Below, piece by piece: positions 4,825 through 13,104 of a stretch of DNA of 64,000 nt. This DNA comes from Asanoa sp. WMMD1127. Lineage in GTDB: Bacteria; Actinomycetota; Actinomycetes; Mycobacteriales; Micromonosporaceae. The notes beneath the pieces were generated by a model. It was not told where the DNA came from and did no database searches. It worked only from the letters and a program-made list of their open reading frames with translations. The stretch covers positions 5,828,001 to 5,892,000 of the forward strand of contig NZ_JARUBP010000001.1 of NCBI RefSeq assembly GCF_029626225.1, written 5' to 3'. The translations under genes and the position numbers were made by a program. The stretch's first letter is position 1. The number at the start of each line of letters is the position of its first letter.

Positions 4825-5008
4825 TGTTGCCTCTCGGTGTGCGTGCGCAGCGCACAGCGGAGGCCCACGACCGGCGCTGACGGGGGAACGGCGATCGGGC
4901 GGCGCACCTGCCCTGGCGCCGCACCCGGCCCGGCTCCCGCGCTCGGCCTCGCCGCCGAGGTTCACACGTGCGATCGGACCCTGTCAATGGTGCGGCCGGA
5001 GTGGTGTG

Positions 5009-5305
5009 ATGGTCGGCATGTGCACGACGCAGGAGTGTCCATCACGGACGACCACGACGGCCGCCACCGTCACCCGGCGGGCGGCCCTGTTCGGCGGCGC
5101 GCTCGTCGCCGCCGGCGCGGCGCTGCCGACCGCGCCGGCCAGCGCACACGGCCGGCGCGGGCTGGCCGACCTGACCTATCCGCTGACCACCACGTTCCCG
5201 GCGTTCGCGCCGGGTGAGGAGGCGGCCCGGCGGACCTACGTGACCATCGAGGACAACGGCTACTACATGCAGGAGTGGACGGGGGAGGGCGGGCACGTGC
5301 TCTGA
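5009..5305 (+). pseudogene. N-terminal half of a Tat-exported cyclase-family hydrolase, split by the integrated element
   Basis: This is the first 86 codons of a cyclase/kynurenine formamidase-like gene, followed by the att core and a short read-through into the element that stops at TGA 5303-5305. A twin-arginine signal is visible (TRRAALFGGALVAAGAAL ending in APASA). The mature part LADLTYPLTTTFPAFAP matches the start of cyclase-family proteins. The ATG at 5009 has GGAG 7 bases upstream; the ATG at 5018 is an alternative. The metal-binding His/Asp residues are all in the separated C-terminal half at 12532-13104, so this fragment alone should be inactive. The break falls within the codons for MQEW. 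Confidence 0.88.
5266..5278. repeat. attL core (13-bp direct repeat)
   Basis: CATGCAGGAGTGG, identical to the copy at 12531-12543. Bases on both sides differ between the two copies, so 13 bp is the full shared core. It encodes MQEW in the host gene frame. Confidence 0.9.
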
Positions 5306-5321
5306 CCTGCGTCAAAGGAGA

Positions 5322-6470
5322 TCACGCCTCCTTCGCGGGGCGCACCTGGGGCACATCGCGTCGGAAAGCGTCGTCGATCGCCTGCCGCGACCGGTCCTCG
5401 TCGCTCGGCCACAGGTGGCTGTAGACATTCAGGGTCATCGCCGCGTTGGCGTGACCGAGCAGCTTCGCGACCGCCTTCGGTGACAGACCGGCCGCGATCA
5501 GGAGGCTCGCGTAGAAATGCCGCGTGTCGTGGTAGCCGGCGTCCGGCACCCCGGCGGCCACCCGGGCCGGTGCCCACACCTCGTCGTTGAAGCGGTTCCG
5601 CACCAGCGGGCGCCCCTTGGCGTCGCTGAACACGAACCGCGCCAGCCGATGCACCGGGCGCTTCCCGGTGGTGTCGAGCACCTCAACCTCGACCGGCGGG
5701 TACGCCTTCATGTGCGCGGCGAGCTCGGCCACCGCGACGTCGCCGAGCGGCACCGGCCGGTACGACGCTTTCGACTTCAGCGGGCAGACCACCACGCCGC
5801 CGCCGCGCTGCGGCTGTAGCTGCTGGTCGATCTTCACCGACTTGCGCAGGAAGTCGATTCGGTCGACCTCGACGGCGAACGCCTCGCCCTGCCGCGGGCC
5901 GGCCGCCGCGCCGAGCACGACCAGGCCGCGGTATCGCGGCTCGATCCGGTCGGCGAGCGCGTCGACCTGGTCGATGGTCAGCGGCACGATCTCGGCGTGC
6001 GTCAGCTCGGGCAGCTTCACGCCGAGCGTCGGGTCGACGCCGATCGCGCGGTCGCGCACGGCCGCGGCGAAGACGGCTCGCACCGTGCGCCACACCGACC
6101 GGGCAGTCGACGGCGCCAGCTCGAGGCCCGTCACGAACCCCTGTAGCTCGCTGAACCGCAGAGCCGCGACGGGCCGGCCGCCAAACGCCGGGTACGCATG
6201 GGTGTGCAGCTGCGACTTCACCCGGTCGCGGGTGTTGGGCCGATGCGGCTGGGCCACGCGCCACCGCTCGGCGTACGCCTGGAAGGTCTCCTTGCCGGCC
6301 TGCGGGTCGACGTACGCGCCGGTGTTCAGGCTGTGCTCGATCGACGCCCGGAACCGGTCCGCCTCGACTTTGCGCGCGAAGGCTCGCTTCCGCTGCCGGC
6401 CGGCCTCGTCGCGCCAGCGGACCTCCCACGGCTTCGGCCGGTCGTCGGTGCGTCTCTTGACGGTCGCCAT
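5322..6470 (-). CDS. int: tyrosine recombinase / phage integrase
   Basis: A 382-residue integrase that should join element and chromosome at the CATGCAGGAGTGG core. The N-terminal part (about 1-60) resembles the AP2-like arm-binding region, KRRTDDRPKPWEVRWRDEAGRQRKRAF. A core-binding SAM-like domain follows (about 65-150), then the catalytic domain from about 170. Catalytic residues are recognisable: Arg in AAGPRQGEA, His-x-x-Arg in YHDTRHFYAS, the GHA histidine in LLGHANAAMT, and the nucleophilic Tyr in NVYSHLW. The stop lies 44 bases inside the left core, the usual position next to attL. It follows the 6474-7028 gene by 3 bases, so the two are probably co-transcribed. Its C-terminal codons contain one copy of an arm-like repeat. 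Confidence 0.96.
   Translation of the reverse strand: MATVKRRTDDRPKPWEVRWRDEAGRQRKRAFARKVEADRFRASIEHSLNTGAYVDPQAGKETFQAYAERWRVAQPHRPNTRDRVKSQLHTHAYPAFGGRPVAALRFSELQGFVTGLELAPSTARSVWRTVRAVFAAAVRDRAIGVDPTLGVKLPELTHAEIVPLTIDQVDALADRIEPRYRGLVVLGAAAGPRQGEAFAVEVDRIDFLRKSVKIDQQLQPQRGGGVVVCPLKSKASYRPVPLGDVAVAELAAHMKAYPPVEVEVLDTTGKRPVHRLARFVFSDAKGRPLVRNRFNDEVWAPARVAAGVPDAGYHDTRHFYASLLIAAGLSPKAVAKLLGHANAAMTLNVYSHLWPSDEDRSRQAIDDAFRRDVPQVRPAKEA
5347..5356. repeat. putative integrase arm site, left copy (TGGGGCACAT)
   Basis: TGGGGCACAT occurs once near the left end (inside the integrase C-terminus) and twice near the right end at 12402-12411 and 12413-12422, all in the same orientation. Repeats of this kind flanking an att core are typical arm-type binding sites of tyrosine integrases. 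The role is inferred. Confidence 0.5.
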
Positions 6471-6473
6471 GGC

Positions 6474-7028
6474 TCAGCCCGCCCGACCGCGCCGCGCGGG
6501 CGGCAAGTGGCCGCGTCGCCGAGCCTCAGCGATCCACCGGTGCACGGTCGGCACCGGCACGCCAGCCTCGTCGGCGAGCGCCGGTGCGACTGCCTTCGTG
6601 TTGGCCAGCTCGGCGACGTACCGCTCGGCGACCAACCGGTAGAACGCCTCCGGGTCGCTACCGTCGGGTCGACTCAGCTTCTGCTTCGGCGCCTCGTCGT
6701 CGAGCACCTCGGGCAGCTCACCGAACAGGAACTCAGCTGAGAACTTGTGGATGGCTACCGCGAGCGGGTCCTTCCGCGGGCTGTCGGACTCCATCCCGTT
6801 CAGCGTCGCCAGTGCCGCCGGAGTGTTGATCATCCGTTCTAGCCAGCCGATCGGGAACGACTTCAGGGTCGCCGACGTGACGCCGGGCGGCCACGGGTCG
6901 GTGAGCAACATGAGTCGGCTGATCAGCCGACGCCCGTCCTTTTCGACGGTGTGGGCGTAGGCGGCAGGTAGGCCGTCGATTCCGTCGACCCGGACCCATC
7001 CGTGCTTGCCGTAGGTCACCAAACGCAT
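6474..7028 (-). CDS. element-encoded protein with C-terminal helix-turn-helix
   Basis: A 184-residue cytoplasmic protein of unknown function. The last 45 residues (AVAPALADEAGVPVPTVHRWIAEARRRGHLPPARRG) have the helix-turn-helix form seen in small regulators next to integrases in actinobacterial elements. The first 110 residues contain a beta-rich opening (MRLVTYGKHGWVRVDGIDGLPAAYAH) and no motif I can name. The ATG at 7028 has GGAGG 9 bases upstream; the ATG nine bases earlier would overlap that site. It lies 3 bases upstream of the integrase start and just downstream of a perfect 12-bp palindrome, so it may control integrase expression. Confidence 0.75.
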   Translation of the reverse strand: MRLVTYGKHGWVRVDGIDGLPAAYAHTVEKDGRRLISRLMLLTDPWPPGVTSATLKSFPIGWLERMINTPAALATLNGMESDSPRKDPLAVAIHKFSAEFLFGELPEVLDDEAPKQKLSRPDGSDPEAFYRLVAERYVAELANTKAVAPALADEAGVPVPTVHRWIAEARRRGHLPPARRGRAG

Positions 7029-7048
7029 GGCGCACATCCTCCACCATG

Positions 7049-7100
7049 GCGGTTAACCGCGCAAGTAACGATTCTCTCGCGCTGACGTTGCGCTACTTGC
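7049..7100. promoter_or_regulatory. divergent control region with a 12-bp palindrome and a 7-bp inverted repeat
   Basis: This region separates the leftward integrase operon from the rightward xis/rep operon. GCGGTTAACCGC at 7049-7060 is a perfect palindrome 20 bases upstream of the start at 7028. GCAAGTA (7061-7067) and TACTTGC (7094-7100) form an inverted repeat. The arrangement fits operator sites for one of the element's helix-turn-helix proteins acting as a lysis/lysogeny-type switch. Confidence 0.45.
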
Positions 7101-7192
7101 TCGCTCATGATCGCTCGTGTTAGACCTATCGCATAAGCAGCGCGACTTACTCGGTGACGTCGCGCGGACCACCGCTTTCGGAGGGGAGCACG

Positions 7193-7381
7193 ATGAGCGA
7201 CAGACGACCGCTCGGCACGCCTGCGGAGGTCGCCGAATACCTGCGCAAGCCGGTCCGAACCTTGGAGCAGTGGCGGTACGTGGGCACCGGCCCGAAGTTC
7301 GTCAAGGCAGGTCGTGACGTGCGCTACCGATGGTCCGATGTAGACGCCTGGCTCGACCAGCAGACCGCGGCGGCCGCCTGA
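7193..7381 (+). CDS. excisionase-like helix-turn-helix protein
   Basis: A 62-residue protein of the MerR-like / helix_turn_helix_17 type: TPAEVAEYLRKPVRTLEQWRYVGTGPKF, a basic VKAGRDVRYRWSDVDAWLDQQ wing, and an alanine tail. Proteins of this form act as excisionases or small repressors in actinobacterial integrative elements, binding DNA next to the integrase sites. The ATG at 7193 has GAGGGGAG a few bases upstream. It is the first gene of the rightward operon, one base before the next ATG. It is the best candidate for promoting excision and so for restoring the interrupted cyclase gene. Confidence 0.8.
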   Translation: MSDRRPLGTPAEVAEYLRKPVRTLEQWRYVGTGPKFVKAGRDVRYRWSDVDAWLDQQTAAAA

Positions 7382-7382
7382 G

Positions 7383-7547
7383 ATGACCAAGAACGCCGAA
7401 CGCCGCCCCGGGGGTAACGGGGCGGCGCCAAAGACGGCCGGCGAGGACGTCGCGGTCAAGGTACCGCGACCGATCGAGCGCGTCGAGATTGACCGCTGCC
7501 CCCGCGGCACGTGGGGCGTCTACGCCTGGCGGCCGGCGGCGTCCTGA
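7383..7547 (+). CDS. small element protein, 54 residues
   Basis: A short basic protein (MTKNAERRPGGNGAAPKTAG, then PRPIERVEIDRCPRGTWGVYAWRP) with no recognised domain. The start lies one base after the previous stop and its TGA overlaps the next ATG (TGATG), so it is embedded in a coupled operon. That coupling is the main support that it is translated. Confidence 0.6.
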   Translation: MTKNAERRPGGNGAAPKTAGEDVAVKVPRPIERVEIDRCPRGTWGVYAWRPAAS

Positions 7548-8302
7548 TGGCCAAAGCACCAACCCACCAGGGGCCAACGTGGGCCCAGATCTTCCGTGAC
7601 GCCGTGTGGGAGGCGGACCCGGACCAGCTGTCCTCCACAGAGGCGCTGGTGCTGCTCGCGTACGCCGACCACCTCAAGGGCGGCGACACCGCGTGGGTTG
7701 CTCAGTCGCGGCTGATCCAGCGGTGCAAGTTCGGGTCCAAGGGCACACCCTCCCGCGTCCTGGCCACCCTCGTGGCAAAGGGCTGGATGGAGCTGCTGAG
7801 CCCGGCGCAGTGGGCGAACAAGCAGTCGCCGCGATACCGCCTGCGGATCCCAACCGCCCCGATGAGCGGGGCGGTCGAGGCGGTCGAACCGCCCCGATCG
7901 GAGACGAAAGCGCCCCGATCGGAGACGAAAGCGCCCCGATCGGTGGCCCAAACCGCCCCGCTCATCGGGGCGAAGCTCCCCGCTGATGAGTACCGACCCT
8001 CTATAGAGGGACCCTCTAGACCCTCTATAGGGGAGAGCGCACCGCGCACGGCTACGCCGCGCGGCGCACTCCCCGAAGACGAAGACCCGTCGGACAGCGT
8101 CGAGCCGTTGGCGAACGCAAGGGAAGTGGCGCTCGCTCTCGCCGCGGCGGCGAAGCGCCGCGACGTGGTGATCAGCCGGTGGCCGACGAAACCGCCGGCC
8201 GACCCGAACCCGGACTACGACCGCGGCGTCGCCGCCCTGGCCGCGATCGCGGTAGCGGGGCAGTGGCAGCCCGCCGGAGACGAACCAACGGAGGAGCCAT
8301 GA
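7547..8302 (+). CDS. replication-initiator-like / helix-turn-helix protein
   Basis: A 251-residue protein. The first 110 residues (TWAQIFRDAVWEADPDQLSSTEALVLLAYADHL, then WVAQSRLIQRCKFGSKGTPSRVLATLVAKGWME) form a winged helix-turn-helix of the kind found at the N-terminus of plasmid and phage replication initiators. The middle is low-complexity, with a repeated PRSETKA segment encoded by a 21-bp tandem repeat and by a block of nonanucleotide repeats. The C-terminal part (REVALALAAAAKRRDVVISRWP) is helical and unassigned. The repeats inside the gene look like an origin. It may instead be a transcription factor; a replication role is inference. Confidence 0.6.
   Translation: MAKAPTHQGPTWAQIFRDAVWEADPDQLSSTEALVLLAYADHLKGGDTAWVAQSRLIQRCKFGSKGTPSRVLATLVAKGWMELLSPAQWANKQSPRYRLRIPTAPMSGAVEAVEPPRSETKAPRSETKAPRSVAQTAPLIGAKLPADEYRPSIEGPSRPSIGESAPRTATPRGALPEDEDPSDSVEPLANAREVALALAAAAKRRDVVISRWPTKPPADPNPDYDRGVAALAAIAVAGQWQPAGDEPTEEP
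7856..7971. repeat. 21-bp tandem repeats framed by a 17-bp inverted repeat
   Basis: Two and a half copies of a 21-bp unit beginning GCCCCGATCGGAGACGAAAG start at 7891, 7912 and 7933. A 17-base sequence GCCCCGATGAGCGGGGC at 7856-7872 reappears inverted at 7955-7971, enclosing the tandem units. All of this is inside the coding frame of the rep-like gene and gives a low-complexity protein segment. Confidence 0.8.
7995..8027. repeat. iteron-like GACCCTCTA repeats with a 14-bp palindrome
   Basis: GACCCTCTA occurs three times in direct orientation at 7995-8003, 8010-8018 and 8019-8027. The first copy is part of a perfect palindrome CCCTCTATAGAGGG (7997-8010). The block is AT-richer than its surroundings. 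Iterons inside or beside an initiator gene are typical of small plasmid origins; function is inferred. Confidence 0.65.
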
Positions 8303-8481
8303 GCGACGCCGCCAACTTCGTGCCGACCGAGGACGAGATGCAGCAGCGTCTCCGCGCGGCCGTCGCGAAGACGCTGCGCCACCGGGCGGACCGCCGACGG
8401 CAGCGGGCCGACTTCGCCAGCGCCCGGGCCGTCGGCCTCACGCGGCGCCACGCCGACAAGCTCGCGAGGCGGCAGCCATGA
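8299..8481 (+). CDS. small element protein, basic, 60 residues
   Basis: A short, highly basic protein (DEMQQRLRAAVAKTLRHRAD, RRQRADFASARAVGLTRRHADKLARRQP), probably helical and possibly nucleic-acid-binding. Its ATG overlaps the stop of the rep-like gene (ATGA) and its stop overlaps the next ATG, so translation is likely coupled. No family recognised. Confidence 0.6.
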   Translation: MSDAANFVPTEDEMQQRLRAAVAKTLRHRADRRRQRADFASARAVGLTRRHADKLARRQP

Positions 8482-8741
8482 CCGCCGTCCCGCCCGTCAG
8501 TCGGTCCGAGGCGCCCGATCTCGTCGTGGCCGCCCTTCGGTATGCCGCCGCCGCGATGCGGCAGGACGGGGCGACGCTGGCCGCCATCACGTCGGAGTGG
8601 GGCGACCGGCTCGCGCAGCCGCTCGCGTCGTTGGTCGGCGCGCTGGCCACCACGGTCCACGGCGACGGCGCCGTCGACTACCTCGACCACCTGGCGCTGA
8701 CCGCCGACGTCAACGCCGCCTGCCGGACGGACGAACCGTGA
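8478..8741 (+). CDS. small element protein, 87 residues
   Basis: An alanine-rich, mildly acidic protein (SEAPDLVVAALRYAAAAMRQ, WGDRLAQPLASLVGALATTV) with no recognised domain. It overlaps both neighbours by 4 bases (ATGA at the start, GTGA at the end). The helical pattern and coupling suggest a real but uncharacterised element gene. Confidence 0.6.
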   Translation: MTAVPPVSRSEAPDLVVAALRYAAAAMRQDGATLAAITSEWGDRLAQPLASLVGALATTVHGDGAVDYLDHLALTADVNAACRTDEP

Positions 8742-9223
8742 GCGACCGTACGCCGCCGTGCTGCGTCGACGACCCGCGCGGCCAGTGCCCGCAGCACCGC
8801 CAGGCCGCCAAGGTCGTCGGTCACGTCGGGCTGCGCACCCACGGCCCCGCATGGCGGCCGTCCGGCTACTCCCGCCGCGACGTCGCCGCAGGGGAGCGGG
8901 CCAACCAGGAAGCGGCCCAGCGACGCGCTGAGCGGGCCGACCGAGCGACACCACGCGGCACCCGCGGAACGAACCGCGGCCGCGGACCAACCGAAGGAGA
9001 GGCCATGTCCATCCGCCTGACCGATGCCCAGTACCGCGTGGCGCTCGGCGACGTCGACGGGCGCACGTTCACCGTCGTCGCCGCCCTCGTCAGCCTGCCC
9101 GTCATCGACGACAACGGCGTCGCCGCCTGGCGCGACTTCCACGCCGGTGACACCGCGACCCGGGTGCCCCGGATCTTCGCGGTCGCCGCCGTCAATGAGC
9201 GCGAGATCGAGGTGTCCCTGTGA
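8738..9223 (+). CDS. element protein with a probable internal start at 9005
   Basis: The frame from the GTG at 8738 encodes 161 residues. The first part carries Cys and His residues (PPCCVDDPRGQCPQHRQA) that could bind metal. The second part (MSIRLTDAQYRVALGDVDGR, then FTVVAALVSLPVIDDNGVAAW) is a separate beta-rich unit. An AAGGAG site 6 bases before the ATG at 9005 could start a 72-residue product in the same frame, so the locus may make two proteins. Both ends overlap their neighbours by 4 bases. No family recognised. Confidence 0.55.
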   Translation: MSDRTPPCCVDDPRGQCPQHRQAAKVVGHVGLRTHGPAWRPSGYSRRDVAAGERANQEAAQRRAERADRATPRGTRGTNRGRGPTEGEAMSIRLTDAQYRVALGDVDGRTFTVVAALVSLPVIDDNGVAAWRDFHAGDTATRVPRIFAVAAVNEREIEVSL

Positions 9224-9603
9224 CGCTGCCCAACCCCGCCGAGCGGATCCGCTCCGTCCGCGACTTCATCCGCAACGAGACCGCCAAGCTGCCGCCCGTC
9301 GACCACAACGGGCACACGCTGCCCGTCGACGAGCCGCCGGCCGACGACGACGGCGCGGCGATTCTTGAGCCCGTCGAGCCCGCCGACGGCGCCGCCACGG
9401 TCCCCGCTGCCGAGCCGCAGCGACGCAACCCGGTGGCCGACCCGTCGCAGGGCGGCGCCGTCACGCCCACCGTCACGCCGTCACGCGAGCAGCAGATGGC
9501 CGACGCGAAGGCCCGCGGCGACGTCCGCGAGCAGCTCCGCTTGATCAACTCTGCCGCCGGCCAGCCCCGGCGGTTCCCCGGCATGCCGCCGTACGCCGCC
9601 TGA
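9220..9603 (+). CDS. element protein, acidic/proline-rich, 127 residues
   Basis: Starts with a GTG overlapping the previous stop. The N-terminus (NPAERIRSVRDFIRNETAKL) and the C-terminus (SREQQMADAKARGDVREQLR) are helical. The centre is rich in Pro, Asp and Ala and probably disordered. Proteins of this shape occur in phage early regions, but no family is recognised. Confidence 0.6.
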   Translation: MTLPNPAERIRSVRDFIRNETAKLPPVDHNGHTLPVDEPPADDDGAAILEPVEPADGAATVPAAEPQRRNPVADPSQGGAVTPTVTPSREQQMADAKARGDVREQLRLINSAAGQPRRFPGMPPYAA

Positions 9604-9622
9604 ACCGAGAGGACCAACCACC

Positions 9623-10306
9623 GTGAGCACCACCACCAACTCCGCCAGCTACCTGCCCGCAGCACCGCCGCCCGGCACCCGCGTGCTGCCCGAACCGCCC
9701 AAGCTGCCCCGGACCACCGGCTGGTACACCGATCCGGAGAGCATCGAGGACGAAGGCGTGCGCGCCGCCGTCGCCCACGTCCACCAGCTCGCCGCCAACT
9801 ACCAGGCCGCCAACCAGCACTACTCGCAGATCGGCGACAGCGCCCGCGACCGCGAAGCTGCGATCGCCGACCTCGAGCTGGCCCGCCAGGCCGCCGAAGC
9901 GGGCGGCGAGTTCGTCGACCCGGGCACGCCCACGCTCGACAAGCTGGCCGAGGACCGCGCCGCCGCCCACCGCCAGGCCCTCGCGACCGGCGACGTCTAC
10001 GCCATCGCGCACGTCAAGCTGAGCACAGCCATCCGCAAGGGCGTCGGACTCACGGCCGCCGAGAAGTACCGCCAGCGGCGCGCCGCCGCCGCCAACGAGG
10101 CCGCGGCCATGCTCGAGCGGCTCGCCGAGCTCGGCGCCGAGGTCGACTGGTGCGACGCGTGGACGGCGTGGCTCGCCGCCCCGATCAACCAGCAGGCCGG
10201 CGATGGTCGGCTCTCCCGCGTGCCCGGCAGTCGTCGCACCCCCACCGCGGGCGCGGTGGGCGACGCCGTCGAGGCCATCCGCGCGCACCTCGGGCGCGGG
10301 CAGTAG
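9623..10306 (+). CDS. element protein with central coiled-coil, 227 residues
   Basis: Begins at a GTG with GAGAGGA upstream, 19 bases after the previous gene. After a proline-rich leader (LPAAPPPGTRVLPEPPKLPR) come long helical stretches (VRAAVAHVHQLAANYQAANQ, AAIADLELARQAAEAGGEF) and a C-terminal helical segment around LERLAELGAEVDWCDAWTAW. It could be a phage structural or assembly protein; no family can be named from the sequence. Confidence 0.6.
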   Translation: MSTTTNSASYLPAAPPPGTRVLPEPPKLPRTTGWYTDPESIEDEGVRAAVAHVHQLAANYQAANQHYSQIGDSARDREAAIADLELARQAAEAGGEFVDPGTPTLDKLAEDRAAAHRQALATGDVYAIAHVKLSTAIRKGVGLTAAEKYRQRRAAAANEAAAMLERLAELGAEVDWCDAWTAWLAAPINQQAGDGRLSRVPGSRRTPTAGAVGDAVEAIRAHLGRGQ

Positions 10307-10310
10307 ACCC

Positions 10311-10481
10311 GTGGATGCCGCCGCCCGCGTCAACGTCACCGCTCTCTCGTCGGTACCGCCGAGCGCACACGAGGGCAGGGGAGCGATGGTCGCGAGCGCG
10401 TCCTTTCCGCGCGGAGACCGGCCAGCGCGGGCGGCGGCATCCACACCGCATCCCTTCCCCACCAACGAAAGGCGGCCCTGA
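10311..10481 (+). CDS. possible small element protein, 56 residues
   Basis: A GTG-initiated frame that begins 4 bases after the previous stop and ends overlapping the ATG at 10481 (TGATG). The composition (HEGRGAMVASASFPRGDRPA) is not strongly protein-like, so support is mainly positional. It may instead be an untranslated leader. Confidence 0.3.
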   Translation: MDAAARVNVTALSSVPPSAHEGRGAMVASASFPRGDRPARAAASTPHPFPTNERRP

Positions 10482-10760
10482 TGCCGACGAACACGTTCGT
10501 GCGCCGCGGTGGCGCATGGGTCCCGGTAGGCACGGTCACGCCCCTGCCCGGCCCGGACCCGGCCGACCTGCCGCCGCAGCCGTCGGACATCACCCACGGC
10601 ATCCAGCTTCCCCGCACGTCGCTGGCCGCCCTCGACGTCATCGGCCCGCGCGGGACGCTGACGCCCTGGACGGCGTCGACGACGCTGTCCGGCACGCAGG
10701 TGATCGAGGGCCGCACCTTCAACAGCAACATCACGATCGCCGCCGGCGTCTGGGCCCGCC
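10481..10760 (+). pseudogene. 5' fragment of a phage structural-type gene, fused out of frame to a tape-measure remnant
   Basis: The ATG at 10481 has GAAAGG upstream and encodes about 90 plausible residues (MPTNTFVRRGGAWVPVGTVT, PSDITHGIQLPRTSLAALDV, GTQVIEGRTFNSNITIAAG) similar in style to the N-terminus of phage minor tail or beta-helix proteins. Near 10750-10760 the coding signal moves to another frame, where a tape-measure C-terminus begins. The original frame then runs on as arginine-rich nonsense through a terminator. A deletion joining two tail-module genes explains this. Confidence 0.6.
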
Positions 10761-11048
10761 CGGTACGCGTTCGCCGAGCCGGCTACCGGTGGCGAGGCCT
10801 TCATTCCGCGCAACGGCAACATGTCCCGCTCGCGAGCGATCGCCGAGCGGGTCGTGGAGAACTGGCTCGGCGGCGCCGTTCAGTGGCGCGGCCAGGCCGG
10901 CACCGCGGCGTCTGCCGCGCCGGCAGCGAACGTGACGTACGACAACCGGCTGCAGGTCTACCCGCGCGAGGCGACGTTCAGCACGGCGCAGCTTCAGCGC
11001 GAGCAGCAACGCCAGGAGGTCCGGGCCCGGGTCGGAAGGGACAACTAG
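10704..11048 (+). pseudogene. C-terminal remnant of a phage tail tape-measure protein
   Basis: In the frame opening at 10704 the sequence reads RYAFAEPATGGEAFIPRNGN, then SRSRAIAERVVENWLGG, and ends at TAG 11046-11048. G-G-E-A-F-I-P followed by an R-S-R-A helix is the characteristic end of actinophage tape-measure proteins. Only about 95 residues remain of proteins that usually exceed 1,000. An ATG at 10821 could still start a 75-residue peptide. Confidence 0.7.
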
Positions 11049-11059
11049 CGAGCGCACGA

Positions 11060-11101
11060 CAACGGCCGGGCACCCCAGGGAGGTTGGGTGCCCGGCCGTT
11101 G
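11060..11101 (+). terminator. strong hairpin terminator ending the rightward element operon
   Basis: A perfect 16-bp stem (CAACGGCCGGGCACCC and its inverted copy) with a 10-base loop, 11 bases after the tape-measure remnant stop. Confidence 0.9.
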
Positions 11102-11123
11102 CTGTGCCGAGAGGAAAGTCGGC

Positions 11124-11166
11124 GGCCCGCCGCGCACGGGTGCCAACCCAGGGCGCGCGGCGGGCC
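11124..11166 (-). terminator. hairpin terminator of the leftward small-gene operon
   Basis: GGCCCGCCGCGC (11124-11135) pairs with GCGCGGCGGGCC (11155-11166), a 12-bp stem with a 19-base loop, 3 bases beyond the stop at 11170. With the hairpin at 11060-11101 it insulates two converging transcripts. Confidence 0.75.
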
Positions 11167-11169
11167 TGT

Positions 11170-11379
11170 CTAGATGGCCCGGTACACCGCGCCCAGGCCG
11201 CCGTGGTGGATCAGGCGCCGGATCGCGCAGCGGAAGGCCTGGCACCGCTCTGGGTCGTCGCTCGGGCAGACCAGGCAGGTGCCCTCGACGTGGACCCGCA
11301 CCGTGTACCGGGCGGCCGCGACCTCGAAGGGGATCTCGATCTCGGTCACGGTGCTGAGTTGGAACACGCTCGCTCTCAC
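11170..11379 (-). CDS. small cysteine-containing element protein, 69 residues
   Basis: Reads VFQLSTVTEIEIPFEVAAAR, a VHVEG strand, then CLVCPSDDPERCQAFRC. Four cysteines in a C-x2-C, x7, C-x4-C pattern could bind zinc. The GTG at 11379 overlaps the TGA of the upstream membrane-protein gene (GTGA). Family not recognised. Confidence 0.6.
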   Translation of the reverse strand: MRASVFQLSTVTEIEIPFEVAAARYTVRVHVEGTCLVCPSDDPERCQAFRCAIRRLIHHGGLGAVYRAI

Positions 11380-11495
11380 GACTGACCGTCCAGCCACAGC
11401 GTGTAGATCGTGACGACCGCGGTGATCGCGATGATGACCAGGCCCGGCCAGTCCGCGCGGTGCAGCCGGCGCAGGAACTCGCGCAGCGGGCTCAC
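11376..11495 (-). CDS. single-pass small membrane protein, 39 residues
   Basis: A basic N-terminus (SPLREFLRRLHRADWP) is followed by one hydrophobic segment (GLVIIAITAVVTIYTLWL), so it is a likely small inner-membrane protein. Its GTG start overlaps the previous stop and its stop overlaps the next start, making a coupled three-gene string. Holin-like or regulatory roles are possible but unsupported. Confidence 0.55.
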   Translation of the reverse strand: MSPLREFLRRLHRADWPGLVIIAITAVVTIYTLWLDGQS

Positions 11496-11662
11496 CACCG
11501 GCCGCCGTTGCGTCGCACCTCGTCGAGCAGCCGCTCGCGTGCGGCGATCTGCTGGGCTTCCTCGCGCGCATCCAGCGCCGCGGCCGTGACGCGGGCGCGT
11601 TTGGCCGCGATTCTCGCCGCTCGCCGCCGCCAGGGTGTCAGCCACATCGGTAGCCTGAACAT
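11492..11662 (-). CDS. small basic element protein, 56 residues
   Basis: MFRLPMWLTPWRRRAARIAA continues as a charged helix to EVRRNGGRW. The ATG at 11662 has GGAGG 8 bases upstream, clearly better than the TTG further out. First gene of a leftward coupled string (11662 to 11170). Function unknown. Confidence 0.6.
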   Translation of the reverse strand: MFRLPMWLTPWRRRAARIAAKRARVTAAALDAREEAQQIAARERLLDEVRRNGGRW

Positions 11663-11766
11663 CGGGTCGACCTCCAACCGGTCGATCAAGGCCCCTCGTC
11701 GGCGTTCCTGCGCTGGCGTGGGGCCGTCCTACTTTGAGTAGTCGGACCTCCACAGGCTGGCATAGG

Positions 11767-11806
11767 GTTGAACAGCTATCAACCCCCCGGTTGACCCGTG
11801 TTCAAC
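11767..11806. promoter_or_regulatory. twin operators GTTGA-N7-TCAAC
   Basis: GTTGA-N7-TCAAC occurs at 11767-11783 and again at 11790-11806, 23 bases apart, with an extra GTTGA half-site at 11821. The sites lie between the leftward gene starting at 11662 and the rightward HTH gene starting at 11831. Identical half-sites with identical spacing suggest binding of one dimeric regulator, probably the adjacent HTH protein. Confidence 0.6.
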
Positions 11807-11830
11807 GGGTGCACCGAGAGGTTGACGGCT

Positions 11831-12016
11831 GTGGCTGAGGTGATGGCGCTCGCGGAGATCGCCGACTACCTCGGCGTGTCGAAGCAGCGGGCCGCACTAC
11901 TCGCCAACCGGCCCACCTTCCCCGAGCCCGTCGCGCACCTGAGCGTCGGCCGGATCTGGCGCTCGGCGGACGTCCGCGAGTGGGCCAGCAAGCGCGCCGG
12001 TCGCGACGAGGCCTGA
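11831..12016 (+). CDS. AlpA-like helix-turn-helix regulator
   Basis: A 61-residue DNA-binding protein: MALAEIADYLGVSKQRAALL, ANRPTFPEPVAHLSVGRIWR and SADVREWASKRAGR. This is the AlpA/excisionase-type winged helix. The GTG at 11831 follows the twin GTTGA-N7-TCAAC sites, so autoregulation is likely. Its 3' part overlaps the end of the leftward gene 11897-12328 antiparallel. It may act in control of excision or of the small-gene operon. Confidence 0.75.
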   Translation: MAEVMALAEIADYLGVSKQRAALLANRPTFPEPVAHLSVGRIWRSADVREWASKRAGRDEA

Positions 12017-12328
12017 CGCCCGCAACCCCTCGATCTGGTACGCGGCCTCCTGCAGCGCGACGGAGAAGACCCGCGCCTCGGCAACACTGAGGACACCGTC
12101 TCCCGCGTCCGCCTGCACTGCGAGGTCGCCGATGCTGCCGGCGTCCTGGTCGTCGGTGTCGATCGCGACGTCAGCACGGGAAACCACGACCCGCAGGCCG
12201 CGTCCCCCCTCGAAAATCTTCTTCGTGTGCAGCCGGACGTCGAGCGGCGCGAACTGGTCTTCGTGCTCTTCCTGGCACCAGGCCGGGCAGGGCAGGAACG
12301 TGAACGGGACCGAGGGCAGTACGGTCAT
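11897..12328 (-). CDS. DUF6907-like element protein
   Basis: A 143-residue protein starting MTVLPSVPFTFLPCPAWCQEEH. The C-P-x-W-C-x-x-x-H motif, followed by a beta-rich body (LDVRLHTKKIF, LRVVVSRADVAIDTDD) and a helical segment (SVAEARVFSVALQEAAYQIE), matches DUF6907 proteins common on actinobacterial mobile elements. Function unknown; the Cys/His motif may bind metal. The last 40 residues overlap the opposite-strand HTH gene and look less ordered. Confidence 0.65.
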   Translation of the reverse strand: MTVLPSVPFTFLPCPAWCQEEHEDQFAPLDVRLHTKKIFEGGRGLRVVVSRADVAIDTDDQDAGSIGDLAVQADAGDGVLSVAEARVFSVALQEAAYQIEGLRASGLVATGALAGPLADVRRAPDPADAQVRDGLGEGGPVGE

Positions 12329-12357
12329 GGGGGGTCGCCTCCTGGGGCGATTCAGGG

Positions 12358-12393
12358 GGCCCGGCGCTCAGGTGTTCCAGCACCTGCCGGGCC
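12358..12393. other. bulged hairpin at the right end of the element
   Basis: GGCCCGG, a 4-base bulge and CAGGTG pair with CACCTG and CCGGGCC around a TTCCAG loop. It lies between the DUF6907-like gene start and the arm-like repeats, so it could be an att-region structure or a terminator blocking transcription into the host gene. Confidence 0.5.
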
Positions 12394-12401
12394 CGTCTAG
12401 T

Positions 12402-12422
12402 TGGGGCACATCTGGGGCACAT
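12402..12422. repeat. putative integrase arm sites, right pair
   Basis: Two direct copies of TGGGGCACAT (12402-12411 and 12413-12422), 11 bases apart, match the single copy at 5347-5356. They lie 109-129 bases from the right core. An 8-base inverted pair, GACCTGCG (5304-5311) and CGCAGGTC (12502-12509), also flanks the cores. Confidence 0.5.
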
Positions 12423-12530
12423 GCCGCCGCGAAATGCCGTGAGTGAGTGTGAGTCCGCGTGGGGTCAAATCCCCTGGTCACGGGCCGTTTGCGCGTACCT
12501 CCGCAGGTCAGGGCGCTGCGGGGGTTTCTC

Positions 12531-12543
12531 CATGCAGGAGTGG
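12531..12543. repeat. attR core (13-bp direct repeat)
   Basis: CATGCAGGAGTGG, identical to the left core. The ATG inside it is in frame with the C-terminal cyclase half. Confidence 0.9.
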
Positions 12544-13104
12544 CGGATCCTCGAGCACTACGGCACGCACGTCGACGCGCCCGGCCACTTCGTCGCGGGC
12601 GGCCGGCTGGCCACCGAGATCGGCATCGACGAACTCGTGGCGCCGGTCGTGGTCGTCGACATCGCCCGCCGTGCGGCCCGCGACCCCGACGCCACGGTCA
12701 GCGTCGACGACCTGCTGGCCCACGAACGCCGCTACGACCGCATCCCGCGCGGCGCGGCGGTGTTCATGTTCTCCGGCTGGGGCGCGAAGGTCGGCGACCC
12801 GGACGCCTACCGGGGCACCGACGCGGCCGGCACGCTGCACTTCCCGGGGTTCAGCGTCGACGCGTGCGAGTGGCTGCTGCGCCGGCGCGGCATCCGCTGC
12901 CTCGGCGTCGACACGCTCAGCATCGACCCCGGCGTCTCGGCCACCTTCGACACCCACCTGGCCCTGCTCGGCGCCGACCGCTACGGGGTCGAGAACGTGG
13001 CCAACCTCCACCGCCTGCCGAGGCGCGGCGCGACGGTCATGGTGGGCCTGATCCCCTACGAAGGGGGCTCCGGCGGTCAGGCACGCGTGTTCGCGACCTG
13101 GTAG
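12532..13104 (+). pseudogene. C-terminal half of the split cyclase-family hydrolase
   Basis: 190 residues starting at the att-core ATG, MQEWRILEHYGTHVDAPGHF. The H-x-G-T-H-x-D-x-P-x-H motif is the metal-binding signature of cyclase/kynurenine formamidase-like enzymes. Later conserved blocks (FSGWGAKV, HFPGFSVDACEWLLRRRGIR, GVDTLSIDPG) are intact. The matching N-terminus with its Tat signal is at 5009-5278. The frame is open upstream to an ATG at 12421 in the element, so a cytoplasmic C-terminal fragment might be made, lacking the signal and first 86 residues. Joined to the left half it gives a 276-residue protein of normal length. Confidence 0.88.

What the first reader, a model, noticed from the sequence alone, without database searches (positions are those of the whole stretch)
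5266..12543. Integrated element splits a Tat-exported cyclase gene in frame; excision restores the enzyme
The 13-bp repeat CATGCAGGAGTGG bounds the element. Left of it the frame reads ...NGYYMQEW, right of it MQEWRILEHYGTHVDAPGHF. Recombination of the repeats yields a continuous 276-residue protein with a Tat signal and the complete H-x-G-T-H-x-D-x-P-x-H metal motif. The core is inside a protein gene, not a tRNA gene. The element keeps a full integrase and an excisionase-like HTH gene. This matches the logic of excision-regulated genes (comK, sigK, nifD), but for an exported hydrolase in an actinomycete. Loss of packaging genes with retention of int and xis-like genes would fit domestication as a switch.
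Basis: partly seen in the sequence, partly recalled or inferred. Interest (0 to 1): 0.87.

Follow-up and report, generated by a model that had tools for sequence, protein, structure and literature searches.

The report
Small defective prophage interrupting a cyclase
A 7.3-kb leftover of a bacterial virus has inserted itself into the middle of an exported enzyme's gene and looks able to leave precisely, but nothing shows that the bacterium uses this as a switch; it looks like an ordinary insertion at an unusual address.

Summary
CATGCAGGAGTGG lies at 5266 and 12531 and nowhere else in the 7.97-Mb genome. Joining the flanks gives one continuous frame of 277 codons. All five congeners held carry the gene uninterrupted, 85-90% identical, with the same upstream DNA. 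The insert is a defective prophage. It keeps a full-length tyrosine integrase, an excisionase-like gene, a replication-initiator-like gene and the last ~100 residues of a tape-measure protein. No packaging or transfer family was hit among the ORFs scanned. Most of its att arms recur at similar spacing in five related elements, so excision is plausible.

The domesticated-switch reading is not supported. None of the five congeners has the element, and one of its proteins is in 1 of 354 family genomes. The split gene shows no decay, which fits a recent insertion as well as selection. Related integrases whose sites could be read join at 3' ends of genes; this one breaks its target at codons 88-91. 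Gene-splitting prophages are known (sigK/skin, spsM/SPbeta, yabG/yin), so I file it as a new member of a known kind. No reads were available: excision itself is untested.

The parts
5006..5278 (+). 5' part of the exported cyclase gene (signal and start of the fold), up to and including the attL core
   Evidence: congeners continue here without a break
5266..5278 (+). attL core CATGCAGGAGTGG
5302..5311 (+). arm-type site CTGACCTGCG, inverted copy of 12502-12511
   Evidence: the 10-mer in either orientation occurs only twice in 64 kb
5322..6470 (-). tyrosine integrase, 382 aa, full length
5347..5357 (+). arm-type site TGGGGCACATC, direct copy of 12402 and (10 of 11 bases) 12413
6474..7037 (-). 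187-aa protein with a weak C-terminal HTH; relatives in 19 other genomes of 354
7193..7381 (+). excisionase-like HTH_17 protein, 62 aa
   Evidence: a homologue 53-63% identical lies near seven of the eight closest integrases and one 36% identical near the eighth
7547..8302 (+). replication-initiator (O-like) protein
   Evidence: PHROG 391, 6.3e-6; Pfam HTH_36 below cut-off
8298..10306 (+). run of small ORFs of unknown function (8298, 8478, 8738, 9005, 9220, 9623)
   Evidence: no confident family hit; 9623-10306 found in 1 of 354 family genomes
10481..10745 (+). start of an ORF that runs out of frame into the tape-measure remnant
   Evidence: no family hit; frame change read
10740..11048 (+). 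C-terminal ~100 residues of a tape-measure protein, remnant
   Evidence: relatives in 21 viral contigs; in 11 of 11 of these examined it is the end of a 701-963 aa ORF; one of those ORFs is tape measure by PHROG. The fragment itself has no PHROG or Pfam hit
11798..12016 (+). second excisionase/HTH-like protein
   Evidence: PHROG 597 2.1e-7, 66 1.9e-6
11897..12328 (-). DUF6907-like ORF (its true 3' limit is uncertain; overlaps 11798-12016)
   Evidence: PF21848 1.2e-5, 26.3 bits against cut-off 26
12402..12422 (+). two neighbouring arm-type copies of TGGGGCACAT
12502..12511 (+). arm-type site CGCAGGTCAG
12531..12543 (+). attR core CATGCAGGAGTGG
12544..13104 (+). 3' part of the cyclase gene with the whole H-x-G-T-H-x-D-x-P-x-H motif
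   Evidence: PF04199 1.4e-35 for ORF 12421-13104; 8f9x 1.9e-54 with the joined protein

Best explanation
A small defective prophage-derived integrative element, 7,265 bp from core to core, integrated (probably recently) by site-specific recombination. It entered a conserved attB inside a Tat-type exported cyclase/isatin-hydrolase-like gene and interrupts it at codons 88-91. Its integrase, excisionase-like protein and att arms look usable. It most likely excises now and then for its own maintenance or spread, which restores the enzyme gene in those cells as a side effect. Shown: anatomy, empty sites in congeners, prophage remnant, arm sites. Inferred: recency, loss of enzyme function while integrated, and any excision.
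For: Core twice in the genome; in-frame join; 5 of 5 congeners uninterrupted with matching upstream DNA. Integrase 54-64% identical to those of eight loci in seven genomes (at most five candidates scored per genome). One of these (L073) lies beside phage genes: terminase, portal/head, tape measure. In five related elements whose end repeats I used (of 12 regions fetched), arm motifs GCAGGTC and GGGCACA recur at similar distances from the core; the left-side GACCTGC recurs in one of the five. Tape-measure end remnant. In the 186-codon 3' part, own-versus-congener dN/dS of 0.094-0.153 lies within the 0.086-0.189 between intact congeners, with 2 nonsynonymous and 3 synonymous private codons.
Against: Excision was not observed; no reads. 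One residue inside the integrase HxxR motif differs from all eight aligned relatives, so activity may be reduced. Recency rests on few substitutions. Other strains of this species could not be looked at (one genome per species).
Confidence: 0.72

Rival explanations
1. Domesticated regulatory switch (active lysogeny): the host times excision and so the appearance of the exported cyclase.
For: Precise in-frame restoration, loss of structural genes with one remnant, full-length int and xis-like genes, split gene undecayed.
Against: Not conserved: 0 of 5 congeners have it. No sign of host control was found, though none was specifically sought. The same features are expected of any recently inserted defective prophage. 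Absence elsewhere is not decisive: the comparable yin element was also found in a single strain (PMC10747680, passages).
Confidence: 0.1
2. Phage satellite: a small parasite with its own int, Xis-like regulators and replication initiator that is packaged by a helper phage.
For: Size, int at one end, divergent regulators, replication-initiator-like gene, no packaging gene recognised.
Against: No satellite-type packaging gene recognised. A truncated tape-measure fragment fits a decayed prophage better. No helper was sought.
Confidence: 0.15
3. Stranded, inert remnant: integrated but no longer able to excise.
For: Residue within the integrase HxxR motif that differs from all eight relatives aligned; loss of most phage genes.
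Against: Integrase full length with the catalytic residues by inspection, excisionase-like ORF open, arm sites present.
Confidence: 0.2
4. Insertion converts the exported enzyme into a cytoplasmic one through the new ORF 12421-13104, which keeps the metal motif but drops the signal.
For: ORF 12421-13104 is open and contains the motif.
Against: It lacks about 35 residues at the start of the fold that align in 8f9x, and the Pfam match begins at profile position 19 of 142; no clear ribosome-binding site seen by eye.
Confidence: 0.05

Closest known systems
skin / sigK, SPbeta / spsM, vfbin / spoVFB, yin / yabG intervening elements of spore-formers
   Same: Prophage-like element splits a protein gene; yin has a 14-bp repeat, excision restores yabG, and it is known from one strain with attB conserved in others (PMC10747680, passages read).
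   Different: Tyrosine integrase here; the passages describe a resolvase/recombinase-type enzyme for yin, compared there with those of skin. Target here is a putative exported hydrolase, not a sporulation gene. No excision or timing shown here.
Actinomycete integrative and conjugative elements (AICEs)
   Same: Tyrosine integrase near an excisionase-type gene; two elements with related integrases (L075, L079) carry what I read as an FtsK/TraB-like ORF (name from recall).
   Different: No FtsK-like gene found here; the vast majority of AICEs with tyrosine recombinases sit at 3' ends of tRNA genes (PMC3218068, passages).
Phage-like and other elements of the same bacterial family with related integrases (L073-L082)
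   Same: Related integrase with an Xis-like gene nearby, shared arm motifs.
   Different: Where the site could be read (L079 by its ORF; L075, L076, L078, L081 by eye) the core covers the 3' end of a gene, which stays whole.

Membership tests
Site-specific integrative element (prophage-type, tyrosine recombinase) | Integrase gene adjacent to one att site, direct repeats at both ends, empty site in relatives | tested here: met
Defective prophage | Phage-derived genes present, structural set incomplete | tested here: met
   tape-measure end fragment; no head, portal or terminase family hit among the ORFs scanned, apart from a 0.029 small-terminase hit of the excisionase-like HTH protein
Gene-interrupting regulatory element (active lysogeny / phage regulatory switch) | Element interrupts a gene in frame so that excision restores it | tested here: met
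Gene-interrupting regulatory element (active lysogeny / phage regulatory switch) | Excision occurs and is regulated by growth or development | not testable with these tools
   no reads held
Gene-interrupting regulatory element (active lysogeny / phage regulatory switch) | Conservation of the insertion across strains or species (usual, not required: yin is in one strain) | tested here: not met
   0 of 5 congeners; strains of the same species not held
AICE | FtsK/TraB transfer gene and AICE-type Rep | tested here: not met
   no FtsK hit; only an O-like replication protein
Phage satellite | Packaging-diversion genes and a helper | tested here: inconclusive
   no such gene recognised; helper not sought
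PF04199 cyclase / isatin hydrolase-like enzyme | HxGTHxDxPxH motif and family profile | tested here: met
   catalytic activity not tested

The most novel reading that the evidence does not exclude
A stripped-down prophage acts as a reversible switch for a Tat-exported metal-dependent hydrolase in an actinomycete, using a tyrosine integrase and its own Xis, outside the known sporulation and competence cases.
Probability: 0.09. Interest if true: 0.7.

Novelty: new member of a known kind. Interest (0 to 1): 0.33.

Why it matters
It is a cleanly bounded case from an actinomycete integrase family whose readable relatives join at gene 3' ends but which here sits in the first third of a gene. It gives an exact attB, attP and arm map that PCR or reads could test. 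If excision were regulated, it would extend gene-interrupting elements to exported enzymes of actinomycetes.

Tried and rejected
Close kin of the element in phage and virus collections: DNA of the insert against 50,697 phage records gave no match. The integrase gave only records under 60% identity in phages and plasmids and one distant viral contig at 24%. The o9623 and replication proteins gave no relatives in viral contigs; the tape-measure fragment and the replication protein gave none in phages. The genome-contig scan with the integrase gave 16 loci at 22-33% identity, too distant to use.

Phages with the same attP: gapped patterns of arm plus core gave 50 and 64 stretches in viral contigs. 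I take these as chance, but made no chance count. Only one contig (L170) matched both; inspection shows the match inside a long coding frame with no related integrase nearby. The other 112 stretches were not inspected.

A second insertion at the same site: in G103 the gene is also split there, but by an IS200/IS605-type element, so it is not kin. G278, whose match starts at residue 57, is not interrupted at the site.

RNA families: none at gathering score in the window nor around the G103 insertion. Defence models: two HTH-region hits, mad1 5.6e-5 for the 187-aa protein and PDC-M06B 4.6e-8 for the second HTH protein, among 9 proteins scanned; not taken as a defence system. dN/dS of the 5' part: own-versus-congener 0.226-0.385; congener pairs 0.211-0.830, but those rows include untrimmed sequence before the start codon, so I did not use them.

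Literature: 0 held papers with cyclase family protein + prophage + attB and 0 with the six-term developmental search; 1 listed for active lysogeny + excision + Streptomyces (listing only), 4 for phage regulatory switch terms (listing), 2 each. Only PMC10747680 and PMC3218068 were opened, as passages. One search failed on its wording and was not repeated in that form.
Full report
Observation. The repeat CATGCAGGAGTGG is at 5266-5278 and 12531-12543. With one mismatch allowed the window has 2 matches, against a mean of 0.11 in shuffles. In the whole genome (7,967,499 bp) it occurs exactly twice. Joining left flank, one core and right flank gives 277 codons and a stop with no frame break. No tRNA gene is in the window. 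The joined protein is a PF04199 cyclase-type enzyme (Pfam run on the right-hand ORF); its best solved relative by sequence is 8f9x (E 1.9e-54), followed by isatin hydrolases. The core ends four residues before the first H of H-x-G-T-H-x-D-x-P-x-H, so the whole motif lies in the right half. The leader is of twin-arginine type by eye; no predictor was run.

Empty sites. All five congeners held (G001-G005) have the gene in one piece, 85-90% identical. Their DNA runs straight through the core, exact in four and with one mismatch in one. The upstream flank aligns in all five (in two pieces in one, and stopping 23 bp short of the core in another) and so does the 3' half of the gene; beyond the gene the downstream DNA agrees only in part and differs between congeners. 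Across the family, my count of the listing gives 62 of 354 genomes with a match at E <= 7.6e-96; 60 read through the site and 2 are split there, G000 and G103 (at most 7 first-look candidates per genome were scored). Of 30 uninterrupted orthologues whose DNA was compared, 17 have the exact 13-bp core and 13 differ by one base. One more, G278, was seen and differs; the other 29 were not checked at DNA level.

What the element is. Gene order from the left: integrase and a 187-aa protein on the minus strand; then on the plus strand an excisionase-like HTH protein, an O-like replication protein and small unknown ORFs; then a tape-measure remnant; then small ORFs, a second HTH protein and a DUF6907-like ORF. 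The remnant at about 10745-11048 has no PHROG or Pfam hit of its own but matches 21 viral contigs. In 11 of 11 that I examined it is the end of an ORF of 701-963 aa, one of which is a tape-measure protein by PHROG at 6.2e-94, on its N-terminal half. In the window it follows another ORF out of frame, so I read a deletion or rearrangement scar. No portal, head, large-terminase or FtsK-type family was hit among the ORFs scanned. The element is therefore best read as a defective prophage remnant, not a complete phage, and it is not an AICE by content.

Att anatomy. In the circle the core would be flanked by inverted CGCAGGTCAG / CTGACCTGCG at -29 and +36 (counted from the first base of the core) and by direct TGGGGCACAT copies. 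I compared five related elements with usable end repeats (L075, L076, L079, L081, L082, out of 12 regions fetched; L081 and L082 have integrases only about 40% identical). In that comparison (left distances counted from the end of the core) GCAGGTC lies at -22 to -28 in four (own -28) and at -54 in the fifth. GGGCACA lies at +53 to +74 in all five (own +70), and at -111 to -122 in four (own -116 and -127). The left-side GACCTGC (own +25) was found in one of the five. So the recombination sites look intact. The integrase aligns end to end with eight relatives and has the catalytic R, K, HxxR, H and Y by inspection (motif recalled), but one residue within HxxR differs from all eight. An excisionase-like homologue lies near all eight, 53-63% identical in seven and 36% in one.

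Relatives' targets. None of the 12 regions fetched around related integrases (up to 20 kb each, one cut at 14 kb) contains the cyclase at E <= 1e-3. Where repeats and gene context could be read, the core covers the end of a gene: L079 ...HFRWK (ORF listed), and by eye L076 ...YNRK*, L078 ...YFNAK* (an 11-12 bp match, no longer repeat), L081 ...NNYR* and L075 ...YFTLD*. For L073, L077, L080, L083 and L084 no convincing repeat was found; L074 lies on a short contig with no convincing repeat; L082 has an 18-bp repeat whose gene context I did not settle. So the insertions that could be read spare the gene; the one in the window does not.

Age and selection. Own-versus-congener dN/dS is 0.094-0.153 for the 186-codon 3' part, against 0.086-0.189 between intact congeners. 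Private codon changes in that part are 2 nonsynonymous and 3 synonymous, against 0-5 and 2-9 in the five others. The gene is not visibly decaying, which fits a recent insertion or continued use after excision and cannot choose between them.

Interpretation. The claim of a domesticated switch has no positive evidence beyond anatomy that any such insertion would share, and the lack of conservation speaks against it. It is not excluded: the yin element of one C. botulinum strain was also unique to its strain and still showed growth-phase-dependent excision (PMC10747680, passages). Most AICEs with tyrosine recombinases use tRNA genes (PMC3218068, passages), so a mid-gene target is unusual for that class but ordinary for phages in general (recalled).

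Noticed in passing
L106 (G103:C1:7766500-7786400), insertion about 1.77 kb: In another genus the same cyclase gene is split at nearly the same base (GGCTAC^TACATGCAGG) by an IS200/IS605-type element with TnpA- and TnpB-like ORFs (names from recall). Two unrelated mobile elements hit the same spot; coincidence or a local hot spot.
   Followed up: partly
window 12461-12474: GGGGTCAAATCCCC near the right end of the element resembles a tRNA T-arm; ARAGORN finds no tRNA. Possibly a trace of an older tRNA-type att region.
   Followed up: no
L140 and L141 (G232:C2): Two copies, 99.86% identical over 9,939 bp (the second cut by the contig end), of a region carrying a homologue of the 187-aa protein.
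   Followed up: no
window 7193-7381 and 11798-12016: Two different excisionase/HTH_17-like genes in one small element, one near int and one near attR.
   Followed up: no
L075: A relative that seems to mix a capsid-like ORF with an FtsK-like ORF between one pair of 19-bp repeats (names from reading the sequences, not from a family search).
   Followed up: no
L020 (G031:C92): A 53-64% identical cyclase in another genus is found as two overlapping pieces (residues 15-191 and 182-273), suggesting a frame break elsewhere in the gene.
   Followed up: no
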